Positions 3,349 through 46,770 of a DNA stretch of 46,770 nucleotides are shown here, in pieces; position 1 is the stretch's first letter, and each line of letters opens with the position of its first letter. The notes beneath the pieces are model-generated. The model was not told the DNA's origin, did no database searches, and saw only the letters and a program-made list of their open reading frames with translations. The DNA is from Pirellulales bacterium. GTDB taxonomy: Bacteria; Planctomycetota; Planctomycetia; Pirellulales; JACPPG01. A program made the position numbers and the translations under genes. Location of the stretch: the NCBI GenBank assembly GCA_036490175.1, contig DASXEJ010000082.1:1-46770 (forward strand). Reading direction: 5' to 3'.

Positions 3349-4083
3349 CTACGAACTTTTGCGACGACGCAACCGCACCACGACCAGGCTGACAAAGCCC
3401 AAGCCGGCCAGCACGATTGTGGATGGCTCGGGAATGCCCGGGGCACTACCGCCGAGTCCCTGCACGATCAAGCCAGTCGAACCGGGGGCTGCGTTGATCA
3501 CGACGAAGTCGAGGTGGTTTACGCCGGATCCAAAATTGGATCCAACCGGAACCGAGAAGGGAGTAGGCGTCCCCGAACCGTTAAGATTTGTCGTAAAGCC
3601 GACATAGGCGCCATTCAGGTAGATCAAACCAATCGTGTCGACCGCCCACGAACCGGTGATCGTAGCTTGGGTCGGATCGAGGCCGGCCATGTTGAACGGC
3701 AAATCATAAATATAGGTGCCGACCGCATTGCCGAACCCTGCCGCACCATTGTCAGTTGGTGTTTGCAAAGCGTTCGGGCTGATCCATTGAGCGGTCGGTG
3801 TGTTGGGCGTCCACCCGGCAGGCAATGGCGAGTCCGTGACGAGGGCGTTCGGACCAGGGAAGGACAAATCGTCGCTGGAAATCAGCGCATAGTGAGGATC
3901 GACTACACCCGCGGCTAGCGGGGTGCCAGTGCCATCCACACCGGTGTTAAACAGGCCAGGTATCGACATCATCGTCGCCTGGGCGATTCCGGACACGTTG
4001 AGTAGCAAGGCGACGGCGAGGACCGTCACACCCAGTCGAGAGGTTTTCAGTAATGGTGTGCAACGCGAGCTAATGCATCTCAC
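3349..4083 (-). CDS. PEP-CTERM sorting domain protein
   Basis: This is a 244-residue secreted protein. The chosen start is a GTG at 4083 because AAAGG sits 7 bases upstream of it, and the product then opens with a signal peptide whose core is LGVTVLAVALLLNVSGIAQA. The longer frame to 4248 has no ribosome site. The middle contains GSWAVDTIGLIYLNG and HLDFVVINAAPGSTGL, the pattern of beta-sandwich domains common in PEP-CTERM proteins. The tail is GIPEPSTIVLAGLGF, a hydrophobic helix, then RLRRRKSS. An exosortase, not in this window, would be needed to process it. Export and sorting are well supported; function is unknown. Confidence 0.86.
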   Translation of the reverse strand: MRCISSRCTPLLKTSRLGVTVLAVALLLNVSGIAQATMMSIPGLFNTGVDGTGTPLAAGVVDPHYALISSDDLSFPGPNALVTDSPLPAGWTPNTPTAQWISPNALQTPTDNGAAGFGNAVGTYIYDLPFNMAGLDPTQATITGSWAVDTIGLIYLNGAYVGFTTNLNGSGTPTPFSVPVGSNFGSGVNHLDFVVINAAPGSTGLIVQGLGGSAPGIPEPSTIVLAGLGFVSLVVVRLRRRKSS

Positions 4084-4158
4084 AGGAGTGCCTTTCTCAG
4101 TTGAATATCGAACAACGAATAGAACCAGTTGCGAAACGCGAGGAACTATTTGTCCGTA

Positions 4159-4174
4159 TTCACTAGCTACCCTG
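4159..4174 (+). repeat. Short direct repeat, copy 1 (TTCACTAGCTACCCTG)
   Basis: This copy matches 4440-4455 at 15 of 16 positions. It lies about 75 bases upstream of the start of the minus-strand PEP-CTERM gene. Its role is unknown; it may be a regulator site or coincidence. Confidence 0.45.
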
Positions 4175-4439
4175 GAGACGCAGGACCCTATGGTCCGCCC
4201 GTAAAAGTTAAGTTGCAAAAAGGTTTCCCCTGGCGGGAAACAACACATCGAAAATATTCAAAAAATCGCGCCGGACGATGATGAAAGCTAGCCGGATCGA
4301 GGGGCGGACTCCGGTTGCGTTCTGCGGAAACCATCGGGTTTCCGACAACGAGCGCAAAAGAAATCCCACAGGACTGACATCAACTAGCTGAAAACCGATC
4401 GACAGACAGAGTTATTGGTTGAAAAACTCTAAGTCGATT

Positions 4440-31244: not shown

Positions 31245-32225
31245 CTACGCAGCGCCTCCACGAAACGACGCCGCGATGGCAGGAAATTCTGCCGCGAGCG
31301 CGGCACGCCAATCAGGAAGCCTCAGGCCGAATTGCTCGAAGGCCCGGGTTCCGTCCAGTCGAGAATTATGGGGCCGCTGCGCGGGCGTGGGATAATCGGC
31401 GGTTGCGATCGGCAGCACACGCTCGATTTTGAGCGGCACGTTGTGAATTCGCGCCTGTCGAAAAATCTCTTCAGCAAATTCGTGCCAGTTGGTCTCGCCG
31501 GCGCAAGGAACGTGGTACGTTCCGCCTCGCTCGCGAAAGGCGTCCGCCGGTGAACCAGCACCGTGTTGGAGAGCGCTTTGCTTGAGGATGTGCGCTGTAG
31601 CCGAAGCGACAAGTGAGGCGGGCGTCGGTGCGCCGCACTGATCCGCGACCACTCGCAGTTCTGTCCTGTCGGCTGCCAGCTTTAGCATTGTTTTGACGAA
31701 GTTCTGGCCATGCGCGGCGTAGATCCAGGAAACGCGCAAGATTACGTGCGCAGCGCCCGCAGCCCGCACCGCGGCTTCGCCGGCGAGTTTTGTGCGTCCG
31801 TAAGCACCCAGAGGGTGCGGCGTGTCATTTTCTCGCCAGGGGCGCGTACCACTGCCGTCGAAGACATAGTCAGTCGAATAATGCACCAGCGCGCAACCCA
31901 GCTGCCGTGCCTCATCGGCCAATATTCCGGGCACAATCGCGTTGATTATCGTGGCCAGTTCGGTTTCGGTCTCGGCGCGGTCCACGGCGGTGTAAGCCGC
32001 CGCGTTGACGATCACCGTGGGACTGACCTCGCGCACCGTGGCGCGGACGGCCTCTAGATCGGTAACATCCAACGCTCGGCAAGGCGTGACGCCGCGCGTA
32101 AGCTCGGGCGCCCGAGCCGTGGCAATAACGCTGCCCAAAGGCGCGAGCGCGGCCAGCAACTCGCGGCCGACTTGGCCTGTCGACCCGATGATGAGGATTC
32201 GCTGCGACATTGGATTAGCGGACAT
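31245..32225 (-). CDS. rfbD: dTDP-4-dehydrorhamnose reductase
   Basis: This 326-residue NAD(P)H-dependent enzyme makes dTDP-L-rhamnose, the donor for rhamnose in surface polysaccharide. It has the Rossmann loop ILIIGSTGQVGRELL, VIVNAAAYTAVDRAE, LVHYSTDYVFDGSG, the catalytic pair in YGRTKLAGE, and LRVSWIYAAHGQNFVKTML. The C-terminal substrate part is FGLRLPDWRAAL. A second ATG five codons in (MSQRILIIG) may be the true start. The other rhamnose genes (rfbA, rfbB, rfbC) are not adjacent. It is divergent from purE. Confidence 0.95.
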   Translation of the reverse strand: MSANPMSQRILIIGSTGQVGRELLAALAPLGSVIATARAPELTRGVTPCRALDVTDLEAVRATVREVSPTVIVNAAAYTAVDRAETETELATIINAIVPGILADEARQLGCALVHYSTDYVFDGSGTRPWRENDTPHPLGAYGRTKLAGEAAVRAAGAAHVILRVSWIYAAHGQNFVKTMLKLAADRTELRVVADQCGAPTPASLVASATAHILKQSALQHGAGSPADAFRERGGTYHVPCAGETNWHEFAEEIFRQARIHNVPLKIERVLPIATADYPTPAQRPHNSRLDGTRAFEQFGLRLPDWRAALAAEFPAIAASFRGGAA

Positions 32226-32408
32226 GGCTACGATGCACTCTCGCCAGCGTTGCGTTCATGCCGATCGGAAAAGGGTATTTGTCGCAAACCGCGTTACGCG
32301 CCGTCCAGGCCAAATTGCGACGCATCGACGTGCCGGCCCCCTTGCCAGCACCGAGGAATATGCCATACTCGGCCGCGCGCCATAAATCGTGATGAAAGGA
32401 TAGCGAAA

Positions 32409-32903
32409 ATGCATGCAGCCGAACGACCGCTAGTGGCCATTGTGATGGGGAGTAAATCCGATTGGGAATTGATGCGGCATGCGGACGAGACATTGAACAC
32501 GTTTGACGTGGCACACGAAAGCCGCGTACTCTCGGCGCACCGCACACCCGACGAATTGCGGAGCTACATCGCCGACGCTGAATCACGCGGCGTGGAAGTT
32601 TGGATCGCCGCGGCCGGCGGAGCGGCCCATTTGGCGGGGGTTGTGGCGGCGCACACAGTGCGGCCGGTGCTCGGCGTGCCCATCCCCAGCACGTCGCTCA
32701 ATGGGCTCGATTCGCTGTTGGCCATCGTGCAGATGCCGGCCGGCATTCCCGTTGGCACATTGGCGATTGGCAAGCCCGGCGTCACGAACGCGGCCTTGCT
32801 GTCCGTCAGCATCCTGGCCACGAGCCGGCCTCCTTTGGTCGAAAAGCTTCGCAAGTTTCGCGCCGACCAGGCCAAGAAAGTGTTGAGCGAAACGCTGCCG
32901 TAG
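32409..32903 (+). CDS. purE: N5-carboxyaminoimidazole ribonucleotide mutase
   Basis: This 164-residue enzyme of purine synthesis converts N5-CAIR to CAIR. The start at 32409 follows AAAGGA by about 8 bases and gives the usual opening VAIVMGSKSDWELM; a longer frame upstream is not credible. Other motifs are ESRVLSAHRTPDEL, IAAAGGAAHLAGVVAAHT, PVLGVPIPSTSLNGLDSL and VQMPAGIPVGTLAIGKPG. SAHRTP with GSKSDW is typical of the class I enzyme that works after PurK. purK is not next to it. A hairpin directly after the stop probably ends the transcript. Confidence 0.97.
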   Translation: MHAAERPLVAIVMGSKSDWELMRHADETLNTFDVAHESRVLSAHRTPDELRSYIADAESRGVEVWIAAAGGAAHLAGVVAAHTVRPVLGVPIPSTSLNGLDSLLAIVQMPAGIPVGTLAIGKPGVTNAALLSVSILATSRPPLVEKLRKFRADQAKKVLSETLP

Positions 32904-32923
32904 AGGTTACCGCGGCAACCTTT
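32904..32923 (+). terminator. Terminator-like hairpin after purE
   Basis: AGGTT (32904-32908) pairs with AACCT (32917-32921), with a CC/GG pair inside and a small loop, followed by a short T run. It begins right after the purE stop codon. The T-tract is short, so strength is uncertain. Confidence 0.55.
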
Positions 32924-32927
32924 GAAC

Positions 32928-32948
32928 AAATCCTGCAGCGCAGGATTT
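32928..32948. terminator. Bidirectional hairpin between convergent genes
   Basis: AAATCCTGC (32928-32936) and GCAGGATTT (32940-32948) form a perfect 9-base-pair stem with three loop bases. AAA on the left and TTT on the right allow it to work on both strands. It overlaps the stop codon of the minus-strand gene ending at 32947. Confidence 0.55.
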
Positions 32949-33558
32949 ACCACGCGTTAAGCAAGTTCTGCAGGCGCGCCGCGGCGCGTAGGTACTTGAC
33001 GACACGCGGTCCGACGCGGATCAGAAATCCCTGATATGCCGACTGCACAATCCAGCGATTCGTCTCGCCCGAGGTATCCGCAGGTAGGATCGCTCCGCCG
33101 CTTTGCAGGGAGTGCTTGAACCCGCCGGAAGCGTGGACCCATCCCACGCCTGGCAAGCGGAGCGCTTGCAGCCGTCGCGCCGACTTTCGGCTTGGCGGAT
33201 CGGTGAACCATCTTCCGCGCTTGTTCCACCATGCTCCCAGGCTTGCGCGCACCGGCGCCCGCGAATCCAGATAGATTTCCAGCGCGTAGGGAAGCGTGAC
33301 GCCGTTCCGAAAGGGAAGCGTCAGGACGAACTGAAAATCGCAGGCCGTCGCACGTGCTCGCAACCATTGATTGGCGTCGTAGCTCCAACGAATCGTGAGC
33401 AGATCTCTGAGGGGCGACGCATCTTTGTTGGAAACAAGGTCCAGAGAGAGCGCGGATGCGCCCGCTTTTTTCAGCTCCCTGGCAACCGGTTTGAATGCGC
33501 GATTGATGCGCCCTATGTAATGCGTCTTGCGAAATGGTTGCAAGTCGGCATGCAGCAT
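32947..33558 (-). CDS. Hypothetical protein, last gene of the aldolase cluster
   Basis: This product has 203 residues. The start at 33558 has AGGGGG 7 bases upstream; the longer frame to 33660 would overlap the class II aldolase. The sequence is basic and mixed: PFRKTHYIGRINRAFKPVAR, SALSLDLVSNKDASPLRDLL, then aromatic segments FQFVLTLPFRNGVTLPYALE and WWNKRGRWFTDPP. No signal peptide or membrane helix is seen. I do not recognise a family. It begins 32 bases after the class II aldolase gene, so co-transcription is likely. Confidence 0.7.
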   Translation of the reverse strand: MLHADLQPFRKTHYIGRINRAFKPVARELKKAGASALSLDLVSNKDASPLRDLLTIRWSYDANQWLRARATACDFQFVLTLPFRNGVTLPYALEIYLDSRAPVRASLGAWWNKRGRWFTDPPSRKSARRLQALRLPGVGWVHASGGFKHSLQSGGAILPADTSGETNRWIVQSAYQGFLIRVGPRVVKYLRAAARLQNLLNAW

Positions 33559-33590
33559 TCTGGTCGCCCCCTGCGCGCACCATCCGCTAA

Positions 33591-34412
33591 TTAGGAATCG
33601 TTTCGCCAAGGATCGTAATCGGTCTCGTGGCGATTGAGCTGCCGCACCACGGCTTCCCACTGAAACGGATAGCGCATGGGCTGCGTCAATACCGAGCGGC
33701 TTTGCCGGGCAACCTCGGGCGGCACGACCTGTAGCGGACGTCCGGTAGCCATGGCCCGCAAGTTCACCGCGCAGGTCCGCTCCATGTCAATCATGTCCAA
33801 CAAAGCCTGCTCGACTGATCCGCCCGTGGTCAGCAGTCCATGGTTGGCCAGGATCAATGCCCGTTTGTCTCCCAACGCCGACACGATGTCCTGCGATTGC
33901 CGCTCGTCCAACACGATGCCTGTGTACTCGACGTACACGGCGTGATCCTCGAAAAACGAGCAGCCGGTCTGATCCAGTGGGTCGAGCAGAATCGCCAGTG
34001 CGCTATACGCCGAACCTGCCGGCGGATGCGTGTGGACGGCGCAATGCACATCGGGTCGGGCGTGATGAATCGCGGCGTGGATGCAAAACCCCGCCTGATT
34101 GATCATCGGCCAGCCGTCGATGATCTCGCCCTTGTCATTCACCAGTACCAGGTTCTCGGCTGTAACTTCGCTGAATAGTTTGCCGAACGGATTAACCCAA
34201 AAGTAATCCGGTGCTCCGGGTACGCGTAGACTGATATGGCCAGCCAGCCCGTCGTCCAATCCTAGTCGCGCCAGAATGCGATACGCGGCGGCCAGCTTCA
34301 CACGTTGCTGCCGAGCTTCCGGCGTATTGGCGATCTCGAGGATTCGTTCCTTTTCGGCACCGTCGCTAATGGTCTTATTGCGAACGATCGTGGTAGGATC
34401 CGTGTTGATCAT
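33591..34412 (-). CDS. Class II aldolase/adducin family protein
   Basis: This product has 273 residues. The start at 34412 follows GGGAG by 7 bases. The fold is shown by RILARLGLDDGLAGHISLRV, FWVNPFGKLFSEVTAENLVL, the zinc-binding HTHPPAGSAYSA, FFEDHAVYVEYTG (acidic residue) and ALILANHGLLTTGGSVEQAL with the third His. Enzymes of this family split or rearrange sugar phosphates and related hydroxy acids with zinc; others such as adducin are not enzymes. All three His are kept here, so an active enzyme is likely. Substrate unknown. It lies 27 bases after the crotonase-fold gene. Confidence 0.9.
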   Translation of the reverse strand: MINTDPTTIVRNKTISDGAEKERILEIANTPEARQQRVKLAAAYRILARLGLDDGLAGHISLRVPGAPDYFWVNPFGKLFSEVTAENLVLVNDKGEIIDGWPMINQAGFCIHAAIHHARPDVHCAVHTHPPAGSAYSALAILLDPLDQTGCSFFEDHAVYVEYTGIVLDERQSQDIVSALGDKRALILANHGLLTTGGSVEQALLDMIDMERTCAVNLRAMATGRPLQVVPPEVARQSRSVLTQPMRYPFQWEAVVRQLNRHETDYDPWRNDS

Positions 34413-34438
34413 AGAATGTCTCCCTGTGCGTGCATGAG

Positions 34439-35272
34439 TCAGCTTTGCCACTCGGGTCGGCGTTTTTCCAGGAACGCGGCAATTCCTTCTTTGGCATCCG
34501 GCATTTGCGCGTTTTCGACCATCGCACGCTCGGCTACTTCATACGCTTGCGGTCGATCCAGCGGCAACTGTTCATAGAACGCCCGCTTGCCCAGTGCCAA
34601 CGTCGCGCCGCTCGCGGACACAATCTGCCTGGCCAGTGCGTTGGTCGTTTCCTCAAGTTGATCCGCCGGCACGACGCGATTCACGAGCCCGATCCGCGCG
34701 GCCTCGGCGGCGGTAATAGGCGCCCCTGTGAGCAGCATCTCGACGGCCTTCTTTGTCGCCACGGCTCTCGCCAAGGCGACCGCAGGGGTGGAGCAGAACA
34801 GGCCGATCTTCACGCCCGGAGTGGCGAACGTCGCTTCCTCGGCCGCGACGACCAAATCGCAGGTGGCGGCCAATTGGCAGCCCGCCGCGGTGGCGATTCC
34901 TTGTACCTGTGCAATCACCGGCTGCGGTAAAAGCCGGATCGCTTCCATGACTTCCGTGCAGAGAGCGAAAAGCGACACAGCCTCGGCCTCGTCCGCGGTA
35001 GCGATCTCGCGTAGATCGTGGCCCGAGCTGAATACCGGTCCTTCAGCCTGCAACACCACGCATTTGATCGTGCGGTCGGATCCGATCGTACGCAGTTGAT
35101 CGCGCAGTTGTCGAAGCAATTTGCGACCCAGCGCGTTGCGGCGTGCTGGATTGGCAAGCGTTAGGATCGCGATCTGATCTTTACGGTCGCACTTGACGAG
35201 TGGCGACTCGCTGACGGCAGCCGCTGCGACCGACACGGTATCAGAAGATGTCGTGGAAGATTGCTTTTCCAT
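34439..35272 (-). CDS. Crotonase-fold (enoyl-CoA hydratase/isomerase family) protein
   Basis: This product has 277 residues from the ATG at 35272, which has GGGAGGAAG upstream. Crotonase motifs are RRNALGRKLLRQLRDQL, FSSGHDLREI (first oxyanion loop) and GIATAAGCQLAATCDLVVAA (second), then ITAAEAARIGLVNRVVP. By alignment from memory with rat mitochondrial hydratase, the catalytic Glu144 position is Gly153 here (FATPGVKIG), while Glu178 (AVEMLLTG) matches Glu164. It is therefore unlikely to be a standard hydratase; it resembles ECHDC3-type proteins. It probably still binds an acyl-CoA. The gene lies 72 bases after the lyase gene in the same direction. Confidence 0.88.
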   Translation of the reverse strand: MEKQSSTTSSDTVSVAAAAVSESPLVKCDRKDQIAILTLANPARRNALGRKLLRQLRDQLRTIGSDRTIKCVVLQAEGPVFSSGHDLREIATADEAEAVSLFALCTEVMEAIRLLPQPVIAQVQGIATAAGCQLAATCDLVVAAEEATFATPGVKIGLFCSTPAVALARAVATKKAVEMLLTGAPITAAEAARIGLVNRVVPADQLEETTNALARQIVSASGATLALGKRAFYEQLPLDRPQAYEVAERAMVENAQMPDAKEGIAAFLEKRRPEWQS

Positions 35273-35344
35273 CGTTCGGTCTTCCTCCCTGGCCGCTCTG
35301 TTGCCAGTGGCCACGGCATCCGGCCCGACGTCAATGAACATCTT

Positions 35345-36319
35345 TCAACTCGCGCTAAAAGCGCGGGCCGTTTTGGCCGCTTTTCGAGGTGGTGCCGAAG
35401 TGCTCTTGGCGCAGTAGTCGTCAAATCCAAGTCGCGTGAGCTGTTCGTCCAGTATCGTGGCTTGCTCGGGCGATAATGGCCGTAGCGGCGGACGCACTGG
35501 TCCACATTCGACTCCTAGCCGCGACATCACACTCTTGCCGGCCGCCATGAAGGCGGGTCCGAAGCGAAGCAACGCTCTCACCAATTCGACGGCCCTCATC
35601 TGCTCGCGCCGGGCCGTGGCCATGTCACCCGTATCGAAGGCGTGAATAACGCGGTGATAAAGCGGCGCCATGAAATTGTACGTACTACCGACCGCCCCAC
35701 GCACGCCCAAGGACAGGGCTGCCAAGAGGATTTCGTCCTTGCCAAACAGAATCTCGAACCGCCCATCGTCGAGCGCCACGCAAGCCGCCAGATCGACGAG
35801 ATCGTCGTGACTGTATTTCAACCCTACCAAATTCGGAATCTGTCGGCCGGCGACCTGCATGAAATGCGCCATCGACATGTTCACGCCGGTCATGCCAGGG
35901 ATGTGATAGTAGTAAAATGGCAGGTCCGGCGCTGCCGCGGCGATCGGGACGCAGAAATCTGCGAGCATTTCGGCGTCGGCCGGCTTGGCGAAGCAAGGGG
36001 CCATCGCCGCAATCGCTGACGCGCCATGTGCCGCGGCATGCTCGGCCAGCGCGATGCAGTCACGTTGGCACGTGTGACCGACGTGAACGATCACGGCAAA
36101 TCGCCCCGCGACGGCCTTGATCCAGGTTTCGGTCAGCAGGCGTCGCTCGTCCATCGTGAGCGACATGCTTTCCCCCGTCGTACCGCATATGAACGCGCCG
36201 GCGAGTCCGTTGTGCGCGAACAGGTCGGCCTGTTCGGTAATCACGTTGAGGGCCAACTCGCCATTACGCCCAAACGGCGTATACGGTGCGGCAATCAGAC
36301 GAACGGGTGATGGTTTCAT
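35345..36319 (-). CDS. N-acetylneuraminate lyase-like aldolase (DapA/NanA family)
   Basis: This 324-residue TIM-barrel class I aldolase shows GAFICGTTGESMSLTMDER (GTTGES 46-51), Tyr138 in YYYHIPGMTGV, and the Schiff-base Lys168 in GLKYSHDDL. Tyr and Lys are at the spacing of N-acetylneuraminate lyase and dihydrodipicolinate synthase. The YYHIPxxTGV form is closer to the sialate lyase branch. The family joins or splits pyruvate and an aldehyde. The basic tail after ARKAAKTARAF-like residues is longer than usual. The gene heads three others in the same direction. Sialic acid as substrate is only one option. Confidence 0.88.
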   Translation of the reverse strand: MKPSPVRLIAAPYTPFGRNGELALNVITEQADLFAHNGLAGAFICGTTGESMSLTMDERRLLTETWIKAVAGRFAVIVHVGHTCQRDCIALAEHAAAHGASAIAAMAPCFAKPADAEMLADFCVPIAAAAPDLPFYYYHIPGMTGVNMSMAHFMQVAGRQIPNLVGLKYSHDDLVDLAACVALDDGRFEILFGKDEILLAALSLGVRGAVGSTYNFMAPLYHRVIHAFDTGDMATARREQMRAVELVRALLRFGPAFMAAGKSVMSRLGVECGPVRPPLRPLSPEQATILDEQLTRLGFDDYCAKSTSAPPRKAAKTARAFSAS

Positions 36320-36457
36320 AGCGTGGCTTACAGGTGGGAAATGAAGATTGGGGACATTGGAACGATGAGCTGCATTGCGCGAGACAATGGCTTGGCCATG
36401 TCCAGCGACTCGTCATTCGTCATGGTATTTGCGATTGGCATCTTTCGTGCGTCGAGT

Positions 36458-36793
36458 CTAACCGGCCGCTAGCAGCTTCGCGAGGGCCTCGAGGCCGGTC
36501 ATGCCCGGCTGAATACCTAATTTGCGTGCTGGCTCGCTGACCTCCACGATCTTGGCCTCGTAAAGGTCTTCTGGCTCGCACAAAGGCTTGGCCGGAGTGC
36601 CCCGAGCGATGGCTACGACCATGCCGAATTCGCCGGCAATGTCGACGTCGTAAATGCCACAGCCGACCATTCCACGGCTCGTATGGATGGCACAATATTG
36701 GCCGCCCGGCCAGCGAAAGCTGGTCCCCAGGACCGCGCCATGGGGCGTCTGGAGCGTGTCGTTACGTGCCGTTGGCAACGTGGTTGTGGTCAT
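36458..36793 (-). CDS. DUF1805 (YunC-like) protein
   Basis: This product has 111 residues. The pattern of the DUF1805/YunC family is visible throughout: GAVLGTSFRWPGGQYCAIHT, GMVGCGIYDVDIAGEFGMVV, AIARGTPAKPLCEPEDLYEA and VSEPARKLGIQPGMTGLEAL. The family forms a small alpha/beta trimer-like fold of unknown function. No signal peptide. GGAAC lies about 9 bases upstream. It lies 138 bases before the lyase gene on the same strand and may head the cluster. Confidence 0.87.
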   Translation of the reverse strand: MTTTTLPTARNDTLQTPHGAVLGTSFRWPGGQYCAIHTSRGMVGCGIYDVDIAGEFGMVVAIARGTPAKPLCEPEDLYEAKIVEVSEPARKLGIQPGMTGLEALAKLLAAG

Positions 36794-37151
36794 GTGAATT
36801 AGTTCCTATTTCAATATACCCCCGGAAGACGTCTCGGACCGTCGACATTAGTCTTGGTAGCCGCGCCGACCAGCGGCTGCAAGCCGCACGACTAGAAAAC
36901 AGACCCAACCTGGTGGAAACAGAAAGGCTGGCAATGGCTGGCCGCCACGCCCCGCGTGATCGATCTCGCGGTCTGGCGAAGATCTACTGGCCGGCGCCCG
37001 AAGAAGGCGAGAAGAGTTTGACGGCAGGCGTCCCGTGGATGAAAATGTCGCTTTGCCGCTAAATCCTGTCACGGATTGCCATAGCGACCCCAAAGTAGTG
37101 GGGCCATTGGACCGTGATACCCACCTTCCGCGCCCCGCAGGAGTAACTACC
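36794..37151. other. Divergent intergenic region
   Basis: These 358 bases lie between DUF1805 and the secreted hydrolase and should hold both promoters. Open frames in it lack ribosome sites. No convincing operator, hairpin or repeat was seen. Confidence 0.45.
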
Positions 37152-38111
37152 GTGAAACGATTGGTCCTCATTCCCTTGCTTTGCGCATTGCCGGTACTTC
37201 TTTCTGTTTCCGCCCGCGCTGCCGACGATGCTGCCGGCGCCACCGCGGTTACGGATGCACCCGCGAAGAAGGAAAGCCCTTACGTCCAGCACCAGGACGT
37301 GGTCTTCGGTGACATCGACGGCGTGGGCTTGTTGATGGATATCTTCACACCCACGGGCAAGGCCAACGGTTTAGGCATTGTCGACGTCGCCAGCGGTGCA
37401 TGGTTTTCCGATCGCGGCAAGATCAATGACCATAAACGTGCCCGCATGTTCGATACGTTCTGCGGCCGCGGTTACACCGTGTTCGCAGTGCGGCCAGGCT
37501 CGCGCAATCGTTTCACGGCGCTCGAGATGCTGGACAACTTGAACCAAGGCATCCGCTGGGTCAAAGCCCATGCCGAAGAGTACAAGATCGATCCCGACTG
37601 TCTGGGCCTGACGGGCGCATCTGCCGGGGGCCATTTGGCTTGTCTCTGTGCGGCCACGGCCGCTGACGGAAACCCGGACGACCGCGATCCGCTGAAGCGT
37701 CCCAGCACGCGAGTGAAAGCCGTGTCGGTGTTCTTCCCGCCGACCGACTTCACCAATTGGGGAAAGCAAAAGGTCAGCCCAGACAATCCCGGCGGAACGT
37801 CGCGGATGATCGGCAACCTGTTGTTCACCGGCGGGATCACGACGCAGAAGAACGAAGAAGTCTACGAACAGATCAAGAAAATTTCGCCGGCCTTGAACGT
37901 ATCGAGCCGGTTTCCGCCGCTCTTGGTATATCACGGCGACGCTGATCCGCTGGTTCCCTTACAGCAGTCCGAAGTACTGATCGAGGCTCTGAAGAAGGAA
38001 GGTGTTGCGGCCGAACTGATCGTCAAGCCCGGAGGCGGACATCCGTGGCCCACGATTCATGAAGAGGTCAAGGAAGTCGCCGACTGGTTCGACACGCACC
38101 TGCCGAAGTAG
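37152..38111 (+). CDS. Secreted alpha/beta hydrolase lacking the usual HGGG oxyanion motif
   Basis: This product has 319 residues from a GTG at 37152 with GGAG 8 bases upstream. The signal peptide KRLVLIPLLCALPVLLSVSA ends near ARAADD. The hydrolase core has nucleophile Ser158 in LTGASAGGHLA, an Asp in YHGDADPLV and His297 in KPGGGHPWP, a full catalytic triad. In related esterases a HGGGW motif before the nucleophile builds the oxyanion hole; here the matching stretch is GIVDVASGAWFSDRG (residues 75-89), with His and two Gly lost. The fold is safe; a normal esterase activity is less so. Possible roles are a sugar-ester or peptide hydrolase. Confidence 0.87.
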   Translation: MKRLVLIPLLCALPVLLSVSARAADDAAGATAVTDAPAKKESPYVQHQDVVFGDIDGVGLLMDIFTPTGKANGLGIVDVASGAWFSDRGKINDHKRARMFDTFCGRGYTVFAVRPGSRNRFTALEMLDNLNQGIRWVKAHAEEYKIDPDCLGLTGASAGGHLACLCAATAADGNPDDRDPLKRPSTRVKAVSVFFPPTDFTNWGKQKVSPDNPGGTSRMIGNLLFTGGITTQKNEEVYEQIKKISPALNVSSRFPPLLVYHGDADPLVPLQQSEVLIEALKKEGVAAELIVKPGGGHPWPTIHEEVKEVADWFDTHLPK

Positions 38112-43142: not shown

Positions 43143-44501
43143 TTACACCAGTTCCCTGATCGGTTCTCCGTCGCCCAGAATCGGCGTCGGCCGGCCGGCC
43201 AGATCGACGAAGGGCCGTCGGTAGTCGATGCCCAAGTGCCGGTACATCGTGGCCAGTAGATCCTGCGGAGTGAGTGGCCGATCGGCCGGGAATTCTCCCT
43301 TGGAATTGGTCGCGCCAATGACCTGTCCCATGCGCAGCCCGCCGCCAGAGACTAGCGCCGCCTGGGCGCCCGGCCAATGGTCGCGGCCGATCAATCCGTC
43401 GCGCTCCACCAGCCGCGGCGTGCGGCCAAACTCGCCGGCAGCGACAATCAGAATCCGCTCCGACAGCCCACGATCGTAAACGTCCTCGATCAACGCTGAT
43501 AAGCCCTGATCCATGAACGGGGCGCGATAACGCATGGCGTCGGCCAGGTCCCAACGCGTGATCGGGTTGATGTGATCGTCCCAACTGAAATAACGATCGC
43601 TGAGCGTGGGCGCGAGCGCGTCGATCGTCACCACCGCCACGCCGGCCTCGGCCAGACGCCTCGCCAACAGAAAACTCTGTCCCCACAAGTGCCGTCCGTA
43701 GCGATCACGCACCTGATCATTCTCATCGCTAATGTCAAAGGCATTGGCGACCGAGGGATTCGTCAGCATCCGCAAGGCCTGGCCCCGGAATTCGTCGACG
43801 CCGTCGAGCGAACCGCCAAGATCCAAGTCGCGTCGCAATCGGTCGAATTGCGGCAGCAACCCACGCCGCTGGTCGAGCCGTCCGGCATCAACGCCGGCAG
43901 CCAACGACAAGTTGGGTGGCTTATATCCCTTATCGGAAGGATCGCCGGCGGCCACCGCCGAGTGAGACAACCCCAGATACGTCGGCCGCGTCATGAATGG
44001 CTGCCGTGGAATGCCGACATAGTTAGGCAGACCATCGGGCCGGCTGCCGCGCAGCTTACTGGCCACCATGCCAAAATCGGGATGCTCGCTCCGCGCGGTC
44101 GAAGTAGGGTCAGGCCGCTCGGGCGTTTTGCCGGTGAGCAGCTCGATCGATCCATCGTTGTGCGCCGACATGTCGTGGTGCAGCGAACGAATCAACGAGA
44201 TGCGCGAGCCGTGCCGCGCCTGCCGTGGAAACAACTCGCAGAGGTCCAGGCCCGGCACATCGGTCGCAATCGGGCGGAAGGGGCCACGATATTCGGCCGG
44301 CGCCTGCGGCTTCAGATCGTACGTCTCCAGATGGCTGGGCCCACCCCACATCCAAAACAGAATCACGGATGTGTTGCGCGTGGACTCGCCGGCGCGGGCC
44401 CGCGCGGCCAGCAACTGGTCGAGCCCCAATCCCCCCATACCGAGCGCCCCCGCGCGCAAGAACTCGCGGCGCGGCAGCGGGCCAGGGCAGAAAAAATTCA
44501 T
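43143..44501 (-). CDS. DUF1501 domain protein with twin-arginine leader
   Basis: This 452-residue exported protein starts MNFFCPGPLPRREFLRAGAL, a twin-arginine type leader (RREFLRAG), with a hydrophobic stretch GMGGLGLDQLL. The DUF1501 sulfatase/phosphatase-like fold follows: VILFWMWGGPSHLETYDLKP, SLIRSLHHDMSAHNDGSIEL, LPNYVGIPRQPFMTRPTYLG, AGVAVVTIDAL, VAAGEFGRTPRL and GRDHWPGAQAALVSGGGL, then AGRPTPILGDGEPIREL. Planctomycetes carry dozens of such proteins, usually paired with a DUF1553/DUF1549 cytochrome-like protein, but no such gene is adjacent here. The function of the family is not established. Confidence 0.95.
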   Translation of the reverse strand: MNFFCPGPLPRREFLRAGALGMGGLGLDQLLAARARAGESTRNTSVILFWMWGGPSHLETYDLKPQAPAEYRGPFRPIATDVPGLDLCELFPRQARHGSRISLIRSLHHDMSAHNDGSIELLTGKTPERPDPTSTARSEHPDFGMVASKLRGSRPDGLPNYVGIPRQPFMTRPTYLGLSHSAVAAGDPSDKGYKPPNLSLAAGVDAGRLDQRRGLLPQFDRLRRDLDLGGSLDGVDEFRGQALRMLTNPSVANAFDISDENDQVRDRYGRHLWGQSFLLARRLAEAGVAVVTIDALAPTLSDRYFSWDDHINPITRWDLADAMRYRAPFMDQGLSALIEDVYDRGLSERILIVAAGEFGRTPRLVERDGLIGRDHWPGAQAALVSGGGLRMGQVIGATNSKGEFPADRPLTPQDLLATMYRHLGIDYRRPFVDLAGRPTPILGDGEPIRELV

Positions 44502-44970
44502 CGCACGACTTCCCAGGGGTGTGCGGCTGTGGGCGGGAACAAAATTTCACGCTTGCGGGCGGGTCCACAAACCTGCGACCGTCAGCCGTCGCCATATAGG
44601 ACGCCGGGCTAGTTCGCAGGGCTGCGGCAAACTCCAGTAGTCTGCGGGGAACCACATTGTTTCGAGTCCGCGAAGGTAGGTCAACTTTTTGCCTGCGCGG
44701 GTGGCTGATTAATGCGTGCGCCCTGGGATATTGTATTTTTGAGCCGCAGCGTCCGTTGCGATGATCGCCAATCTCGGAGGACCGCCGCCATGTATCTCGC
44801 TCATCGGAAACGTGCGTTCCCACAGTCGCCCATCGCGAGGATCTCGGCATAGCGTGTCCCAGCCCGACTACTCATGTGCGAGCTTGCCAACCTGGATGTC
44901 GACAGTTCGAGTCCGTTTGCCCGCTTTATTTTACGGGGACGATGCATGTCCCGTGCACGCCGGCCCATCG
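44502..44970. other. Intergenic region with a tRNA-Gly 3' fragment
   Basis: These 469 bases lie between the DUF1501 start and the lipase stop. The tRNA-like piece at 44884-44925 is listed separately. A tiny plus-strand frame after GGAGG (ATG at 44791, 20 codons) has a good ribosome site but no recognisable product; I do not call it a gene. Confidence 0.45.
44884..44925 (+). other. 3' half of a tRNA-Gly(GCC) gene, probable attachment-site remnant
   Basis: The sequence fits tRNA positions 32-73 without any gap. It has an anticodon loop TTGCCAA (anticodon GCC), stem half CCTGG, variable bases ATGTC, T stem GACAG, the near-invariant T loop TTCGAGT, T stem CCGTT (one mismatch from pairing), acceptor TGCCCGC and base T. 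The CCA end is not coded. The 5' half is missing: no GCGGGCA acceptor strand lies upstream, and the anticodon stem no longer pairs. Site-specific integrases commonly use tRNA 3' halves, starting at the anticodon loop, as attachment sites and leave such copies. It may also be a decayed tRNA gene. Confidence 0.55.
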
Positions 44971-45999
44971 CTAGCGTGCTGCTGCGCGCAATTTGTTGAG
45001 TAAGACCATCGGGACTGGTAGGCCAAGCAACACAAAATAGGCGTCGATGTGCTGATAGATCACTTGCTCGATGAATGTATTCATGGCGACATTCACCGAG
45101 CCAACGAGCGGCAGTACCTTTTTCTGAATCTGTTCGTAGCAATCGTCGGCCACAGCGGCCGAGACAAGACGCACGAGCGTTTTCGTCCAGAACGGTGTCT
45201 TGATGCTCGGTTCGTAAATGCTGTTGATCGCTGTCATGTCGTGGACATTCCATACGCGCGGCACGACGTCCAACGAGTTCCAAATGCGGCGCGTGTTGGC
45301 ACCAAGTCGCTGATCGAAGTAGTCCGCCCATGCGCTGTTGCCGGTGGCGGGTCCTGCATAGCAGAAAGCGCGAACCGCCGCCTTGTTCGTCGGATCCCAG
45401 CGATTCGGGCCAATGACGTTCGGTCCCTGGGTATCGGCTAACAACAATGCGGCCGTGGCCGCCAAGGCGCCGCCTAGGCTATGGCCGGTGACTGTGACTT
45501 CGACATTTCCCCCGCTTGCGGCAACAGTCTTGGTCAAGAAGTCCATCAGCGTCTGACCCGCTCCCGGAATCCCGTAGCAGGGTTTGACACCTAGCAGGAT
45601 TGCCAGACTCAAGGCATCGGAGTTAGAAATTCGAGCGCCTGGCGGAGGCACCCCATAGGTCCACGCCGTTGTATTGAGGACCATGAAATCCTCGAAAAGC
45701 CAATCGGTGAGCTCGTACGGATTTGTGCTGCTGAGAGCAAGGACATATCGGGACCGGTCGCTCGTGTTTTGAGCGATGTAGAAGACATCGTCCGTGTGTC
45801 GCGCAATTAGCGGGAACTTAAAAACCGTCGGGCCCCACACCAAATCCCAATCGCCAGCCACCGCCGGCTCGGAGGCGAGGTGTTGACGCACATTCTGGCA
45901 GAGTTGGACCTCGGTGCCGCAATCGGTGCCGGTAATTGTCTCCCCGAGGTCCGAAATGAAGGCCAAGGTGAGCATCGTCTGTTCGTCGGAAAATGCCAT
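44971..45999 (-). CDS. Lipase, class 3 family
   Basis: This 342-residue alpha/beta hydrolase matches the fungal-type class 3 lipases. The nucleophile Ser lies in VTVTGHSLGGALAATAA; the likely Asp is in NSLDVVPRVW and the His in YQHIDAYFVLLG near the end. Before these come VFYIAQNTSDRSRYVLALSS and WTYGVPPPGARISN, the usual strand and flap region. No signal peptide or lipobox is found at MAFSDEQTMLTLAFISDLGE, so the protein is either cytosolic or exported by another route. GAGAG sits about 9 bases before the ATG. Its neighbours (tRNA fragment, IS) suggest an accessory location. Confidence 0.87.
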   Translation of the reverse strand: MAFSDEQTMLTLAFISDLGETITGTDCGTEVQLCQNVRQHLASEPAVAGDWDLVWGPTVFKFPLIARHTDDVFYIAQNTSDRSRYVLALSSTNPYELTDWLFEDFMVLNTTAWTYGVPPPGARISNSDALSLAILLGVKPCYGIPGAGQTLMDFLTKTVAASGGNVEVTVTGHSLGGALAATAALLLADTQGPNVIGPNRWDPTNKAAVRAFCYAGPATGNSAWADYFDQRLGANTRRIWNSLDVVPRVWNVHDMTAINSIYEPSIKTPFWTKTLVRLVSAAVADDCYEQIQKKVLPLVGSVNVAMNTFIEQVIYQHIDAYFVLLGLPVPMVLLNKLRAAAR

Positions 46000-46670
46000 T
46001 TTAGCAGTCTCTCGAAATAATGCGTGTCGTTAGGCGAGATCCACGTGCGTAAGGCACTAGTACTTTCGCCATTTCGTGGCTGGATTACCGAATAACAGCG
46101 CGAAGAGTCGAGACCGATGCGCCGCGTAGCAACACGTATATTGCCCCCGATGGCGCGGGCCGTGCGCCGGCGGTCTCTCGATCTCACGTCGGCCAGTGAC
46201 AGACTGCGGAAAATACACCGGGGTCATCGCCCGTCGTGTAGTAAGAATGGCGGCGCTCTCTGACAACAAGCTGGCCACGCCGCAGTTGCCAGTCTTCATA
46301 GAGATGAAGCGCCACCGTTACATACGGCGATCGACGGCCAGCCGCAACGTGCCGATGGGCGTAATTGCTCATAGTGACATTTCACGCGGCAGGCGTGAGG
46401 AATTCCCTTTGCCAATAGAGCGCATGCGACTGTCGGATGCGTTGAATGAACCGGTCGCAACGCAACGGCTTTCCGTCATCTCTGCGCCATTTGTCGAGCG
46501 ATACCAGTGCTCTCATGGCCTCTAATCCAATCACCTACCACAAGCCAGTAGCGACTACGGGGTGGGAAGGTACAACAGCAATAATTGTCAGCGCGCGGCT
46601 ACCAAGCAGGTTAGCCGTGCCACCAATCCACTAAGAACAAGTCTTCAAATTGCCTGAATCGATGAAAAAC
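46000..46670. other. Intergenic region before the insertion sequence
   Basis: These 671 bases hold no gene I can support. Two overlapping frames (plus 46196-46525, minus 46184-46372) have no ribosome site and no family match. The left end of the insertion sequence must lie close to the end of this stretch, but without the right end its terminal repeat cannot be defined. Confidence 0.4.
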
Positions 46671-46721
46671 GTTACGACTCCGCCCTCTTGGTTCTCAAGT
46701 CAAGGAAGACGGAGCCGTAAC
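46671..46721 (+). promoter_or_regulatory. Hairpin that covers the transposase ribosome-binding site
   Basis: GTTACGACTCCGCC (46671-46684) and GACGGAGCCGTAAC (46708-46721) pair at 12 of 14 positions around a 23-base loop. The likely Shine-Dalgarno GGAG (46711-46714, 8 bases before the ATG) lies in the right arm, and the stem ends one base before the ATG. In RNA made by readthrough from outside, the site would be hidden; this is a known way for insertion sequences to avoid outside activation. Confidence 0.6.
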
Positions 46722-46722
46722 A

Positions 46723-46770
46723 ATGAGTGCGAATTATCCCAGCGATTTGACGGACGGACAATGGCAATGG
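46723..46770 (+). CDS. IS5-family transposase, N-terminal fragment (partial)
   Basis: Only 16 codons are present, reading MSANYPSDLTDGQWQW before the window ends. YPSDLTDxQW is the hallmark opening of the DUF4096-type N-terminal domain of IS5-family transposases. The rest of the gene, with its DDE catalytic core, lies beyond the window. There is no sign of damage in the part seen. Confidence 0.82.
   Translation, partial: MSANYPSDLTDGQWQW

What the first reader, a model, noticed from the sequence alone, without database searches (positions are those of the whole stretch)
44884..44925. tRNA-Gly(GCC) 3' half without a 5' half: likely att scar of an integrated element
Forty-two bases match tRNA positions 32-73 in perfect register, from the anticodon loop TTGCCAA through the T loop TTCGAGT to the acceptor TGCCCGCT, but the upstream half is missing. 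Integrases of the tyrosine family are known to use tRNA genes from the anticodon loop onward, so this marks a possible end of a genomic island. The lipase, the gene-poor stretch and the IS next to it fit an accessory region.
Basis: partly seen in the sequence, partly recalled or inferred. Interest (0 to 1): 0.6.

Follow-up and report, generated by a model that had tools for sequence, protein, structure and literature searches.

The report
Decayed half of a glycine tRNA gene
The window holds a worn 3' half of a glycine tRNA gene, most likely a scar left when a mobile element once used that gene as its docking site; this is a familiar kind of genomic debris, and no island remains beside it on the side where one would be expected.

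Summary
Window 44878-44925 (+) matches positions 26-73 of the genome's own tRNA-Gly(CCC) gene (C307) at 43/48, BLAST E 1e-13. The genome's true tRNA-Gly(GCC) gene matches far worse (74% over 42 bases), so "GCC" is a C34G change in a decaying copy. Positions 1-25 are absent (9/25, chance level). Twelve other 3' fragments of this tRNA gene with a visible breakpoint, in this genome, in relatives and in five viral contigs, all begin at positions 25-32. One lies about 60 bp from a tyrosine-integrase gene on a viral contig. Both intact tRNA-Gly(CCC) genes of this assembly are followed by integrated DNA, and 16 of 36 integrase hits lie within 1.5 kb of a tRNA (about 1 expected). So the fragment is best read as an integrase-made tDNA scar. 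It does not mark an island in this window: on the side where an island must lie (5', left) the flank is backbone conserved in congeners up to 44501, and no integrase is on the contig. The lipase on the other side is lineage-specific, so probably accessory, but its link to the scar is unproven. Ordinary; a known kind.

The parts
44884..44925 (+). 3' half (positions 32-73) of a tRNA-Gly(CCC) gene, decayed (C34G, G39C, G52A, C66T)
   Evidence: 38/42 identity in register to own C307 gene
44878..44883 (+). probable extension of the fragment to positions 26-31 (GCGAGC against GCTAGC)
   Evidence: 5/6 identical; this level or better at 0.6% of window positions; other fragments begin at positions 25-32
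44502..44877 (.). intergenic stretch on the 5' side of the fragment, where the lost element's inner arm would have been
   Evidence: no other copy in the own genome; little or no similarity to the arms of five other elements
43143..44501 (-). DUF1501 (PF07394) protein gene, chromosomal backbone
   Evidence: Pfam hit; 83-87% protein identity in four congeners
44971..45999 (-). class 3 lipase gene on the 3' side of the fragment, lineage-specific
   Evidence: PF01764; no match in the other 395 genomes of the order searched
46630..46770 (+). start of a repeated sequence, probably an IS, that ends the contig
   Evidence: identical 141 bp on C95, 137 bp on C192, 87% on C15

Best explanation
The fragment is a decayed tDNA scar (attR-type) from a mobile element with a tyrosine integrase that recombined in the anticodon arm of a tRNA-Gly(CCC) gene. 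Integration moves the original 3' part of the gene to the far end of the element, while the element supplies a new 3' part that keeps the tRNA working. The moved part is under no selection. Here the element and the rest of the locus have since been lost or rearranged, leaving a 48-bp relic with 5 substitutions between a backbone gene and an acquired lipase. Shown: origin from tRNA-Gly(CCC), truncation at about position 26, and integrase genes at that tRNA gene in the same genome. Inferred: that an integrase made this particular truncation, and the later loss.
For: 43/48 match to positions 26-73 of own tRNA-Gly(CCC). Twelve other fragments of this gene with a visible breakpoint (own C53 and C207; G003, G022, G024, G292, G127; five viral contigs) begin at positions 25-32 and, but for G003, run to position 73. 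Viral contig L102 carries one about 60 bp from a PF00589 integrase gene. In the own genome, C307 has an integrase gene directly on the tRNA and C114 has another just after it; C207 has an intact and a half gene about 4.6 kb apart. 16 of 36 integrase hits lie within 1.5 kb of a tRNA, about 1 expected. The mechanism is established (PMC4383910; PMC9897764).
Against: No integrase, second att site or intact tRNA-Gly(CCC) on this contig. The 5' flank is conserved backbone from 44501 leftwards. The left flank has no convincing likeness to the arms of other elements (best p about 0.025 of five tests). The assembly is in 393 contigs, so the far end cannot be placed.
Confidence: 0.75

Rival explanations
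1. The fragment is the remnant of the regenerated tRNA gene next to a decayed element lying to the right (lipase side); a deletion removed the tRNA's 5' part and fused backbone to position 26.
For: The lipase lies on the 3' side and converges on the fragment, as the integrase does at C307; the lipase is lineage-specific; conserved backbone stops at about 44501-44538.
Against: The breakpoint at position 26 falls inside the range of integrase-made fragments (25-32), which a random deletion would seldom hit; no integrase or other element gene on the right, though only 1.8 kb is visible.
Confidence: 0.13
2. The fragment arrived inside imported DNA, for example an attP carried by a phage or plasmid piece, and was never made at a host tRNA gene in this lineage.
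For: Five viral contigs carry such 3' parts.
Against: The fragment shares its T-stem bases with the genus type (identical 73 bp in G000, G002 and G003) and not with the viral copies; its exact motif is in no viral or genome contig.
Confidence: 0.1
3. Chance resemblance, or a complete tRNA gene whose 5' half has simply diverged.
For: None beyond 9/25 matches in the 5' part.
Against: Score 71 against a window maximum of 28; 5' part at chance level while the 3' part is 90% identical.
Confidence: 0.02

Closest known systems
tDNA fragments of tRNA-integrated genomic islands (Islander, PMC4383910)
   Same: 3' fragment of a tRNA gene, cut in the anticodon arm, reaching to the discriminator base; the parent tRNA gene exists in the same genome and carries integrase elements
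   Different: no intact tRNA gene, integrase or island in the correct place on the contig; the fragment is an orphan and decayed, so it would fail Islander's filters
Partial, non-functional tRNA genes from element integration (PMC9897764, category 1b)
   Same: partial copy of a host tRNA gene made by integration of a mobile element
   Different: here the second copy and the element are not linked to it in the assembly

Membership tests
tDNA-integrated genomic island (Islander definition) | fragment of a tRNA gene of the same genome, including its 3' end | tested here: met
   positions 26-73 of tRNA-Gly(CCC), 43/48
tDNA-integrated genomic island (Islander definition) | breakpoint at a known crossover region (anticodon loop, T loop, T-acceptor junction) | tested here: met
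   about position 26, within the 25-32 range of 12 other fragments of this gene
tDNA-integrated genomic island (Islander definition) | intact cognate tRNA gene upstream in the same orientation, 2-200 kb away | tested here: inconclusive
   no tRNA in the 46,770-bp contig; beyond the contig end it cannot be tested
tDNA-integrated genomic island (Islander definition) | integrase gene between tRNA gene and fragment | tested here: not met
   none of the 37 PF00589 matches in the genome lies on C82; beyond the contig untestable
tDNA-integrated genomic island (Islander definition) | foreign DNA on the 5' side of the 3' fragment | tested here: not met
   conserved backbone in congeners up to 44501
orphan tDNA scar (partial tRNA gene) | partial, non-functional copy of a host tRNA gene outside any gene | tested here: met
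   intergenic; ARAGORN and Rfam negative

The most novel reading that the evidence does not exclude
The lipase segment (44971 to beyond 46770) is cargo of an otherwise unrecognised small integrase-less element mobilised through tRNA-Gly(CCC) att sites by integrases in trans, like the 4.6-kb C207 piece in the same genome.
Probability: 0.06. Interest if true: 0.3.

Novelty: new member of a known kind. Interest (0 to 1): 0.12.

Why it matters
As a single relic it matters little. It adds one scar to good evidence that tRNA-Gly(CCC) is a repeatedly used docking gene in this bacterial order, and it warns against reading the isotype of a decayed fragment from its anticodon triplet.

Tried and rejected
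Origin from tRNA-Gly(GCC): rejected by scores, and the fragment's own motif is in no genome or viral contig. Functional or full-length pseudo-tRNA: rejected. Left flank as the arm of a known element: no support. Lipase relatives to trace the cargo: none in the congeners, in 395 other genomes of the order or in the genome collection. The upstream neighbour of DUF1501 in congeners as an empty site: different in each congener, so no clean empty site. A count of fragments across the order was limited by the tool to about two scored candidates per genome.

Full report
What is there. The window is the whole of contig C82 in a 7.58-Mb draft assembly of 393 contigs. The fragment at 44884-44925 exists and fits tRNA positions 32-73 without a gap. 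The match runs on to position 26, giving 43 of 48 bases identical to the genome's tRNA-Gly(CCC) gene on C307. Its local alignment score is 71, while no other 200-bp piece of the window exceeds 28; BLAST E-values are 1e-13 in the window and 1.3e-11 in the genome. No tRNA gene or Rfam family is called there. The 5' part, positions 1-25, is absent: 9 of 25 matches, a chance level.

Which tRNA. The genome's real GCC gene (C228) scores 29 against 71 for CCC and is 74% identical over positions 32-73. The CCC gene on C307 is identical over all 73 bases in two congeners, so it is probably the ancestral type of the genus, and the fragment differs from it by T28G, C34G, G39C, G52A and C66T. G39C and G52A break stem pairs, as expected of a relic under no selection. 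An exact search for the fragment's own motif in genome and viral contigs found nothing, so no alternative parent is known.

How it was probably made. Two fragments of this gene in the same genome (C53, C207), five in other genomes (G003, G022, G024, and G292 and G127, which share one flank) and five in viral contigs all begin at tRNA positions 25-32; a further one, in G026, starts at a contig end and says nothing about its breakpoint. All but the G003 fragment, which has a small deletion near its end, run to position 73. One of the five viral ones (L100) is called a whole tRNA by ARAGORN, although its likeness to this gene begins at position 29. On viral contig L102 the fragment begins about 60 bp from a gene with a PF00589 integrase domain. 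In the own genome C307 has an integrase gene whose last codons are the antisense of the tRNA's 3' half, C114 has another integrase gene after the tRNA, and C207 carries an intact tRNA-Gly(CCC) and a half copy about 4.6 kb apart. Across the genome 16 of 36 integrase hits lie within 1.5 kb of a tRNA gene; about one is expected. This is the known anticodon-arm class of tDNA integration (PMC4383910), and partial tRNA genes of this origin are well described (PMC9897764).

Is it the end of an island? In such integrations a 3' fragment lies downstream of the intact tRNA gene, with the island between them (PMC4383910). The island should therefore lie to the left of 44878. But the DUF1501 gene ending at 44501 and the next gene are conserved in congeners (74-79% DNA identity), window 31281-38094 is collinear with G003:C116 172634-180214, and none of the genome's integrase hits is on this contig. 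Only 376 bp remain between backbone and fragment, without copies or clear relatives. On the right, the class 3 lipase gene has no match in any other genome searched in the order, and the contig ends in a repeated sequence, probably an IS. So the right side is probably accessory, but on the wrong side for the simple island model. The gene next to DUF1501 on this side differs in each congener, which points to a rearranged spot.

Verdict. An orphan, decayed tRNA-Gly(CCC) scar of integrase origin is the best reading (0.75). A deletion remnant next to a right-hand element (0.13) and import inside foreign DNA (0.10) remain open. The kind is well known; this instance is new and of low interest.

Noticed in passing
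L026 (C307) 211-1961: A 574-aa tyrosine integrase gene reads through the antisense of the tRNA terminator hairpin and 3' half, ending in ...ERANGLEPSTSSLGS inside the tRNA-Gly(CCC) gene; the integrase tail thus doubles as the tRNA-restoring DNA.
   Followed up: partly
L027 (C53) 3810-4307: A second copy of this integrase tail (92% identical), its gene cut short, followed by a half tRNA and then what looks like the end of another element: perhaps tandem elements.
   Followed up: partly
L028 (C207) whole, L029 (C114) 1-141: C114 and C207 share exactly 141 bp, ending 3 bases after the tRNA-Gly(CCC) gene, then diverge, as if cells of the population carry different DNA at this site. C207 has no integrase gene but a trypsin-like and a Schlafen AlbA_2 gene between an intact and a half tRNA.
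   Followed up: partly
G000: 16 of 36 integrase hits lie within 1.5 kb of a tRNA gene: the genome is rich in tRNA-seated elements.
   Followed up: no
window 44971-45999: Class 3 lipase gene without a relative (E 1e-25) in 395 other genomes of the order.
   Followed up: partly
L102 3624-4548: Viral contig with a tRNA-Gly(CCC) 3' fragment about 60 bp from an integrase gene, a likely attP of a phage of such hosts.
   Followed up: partly
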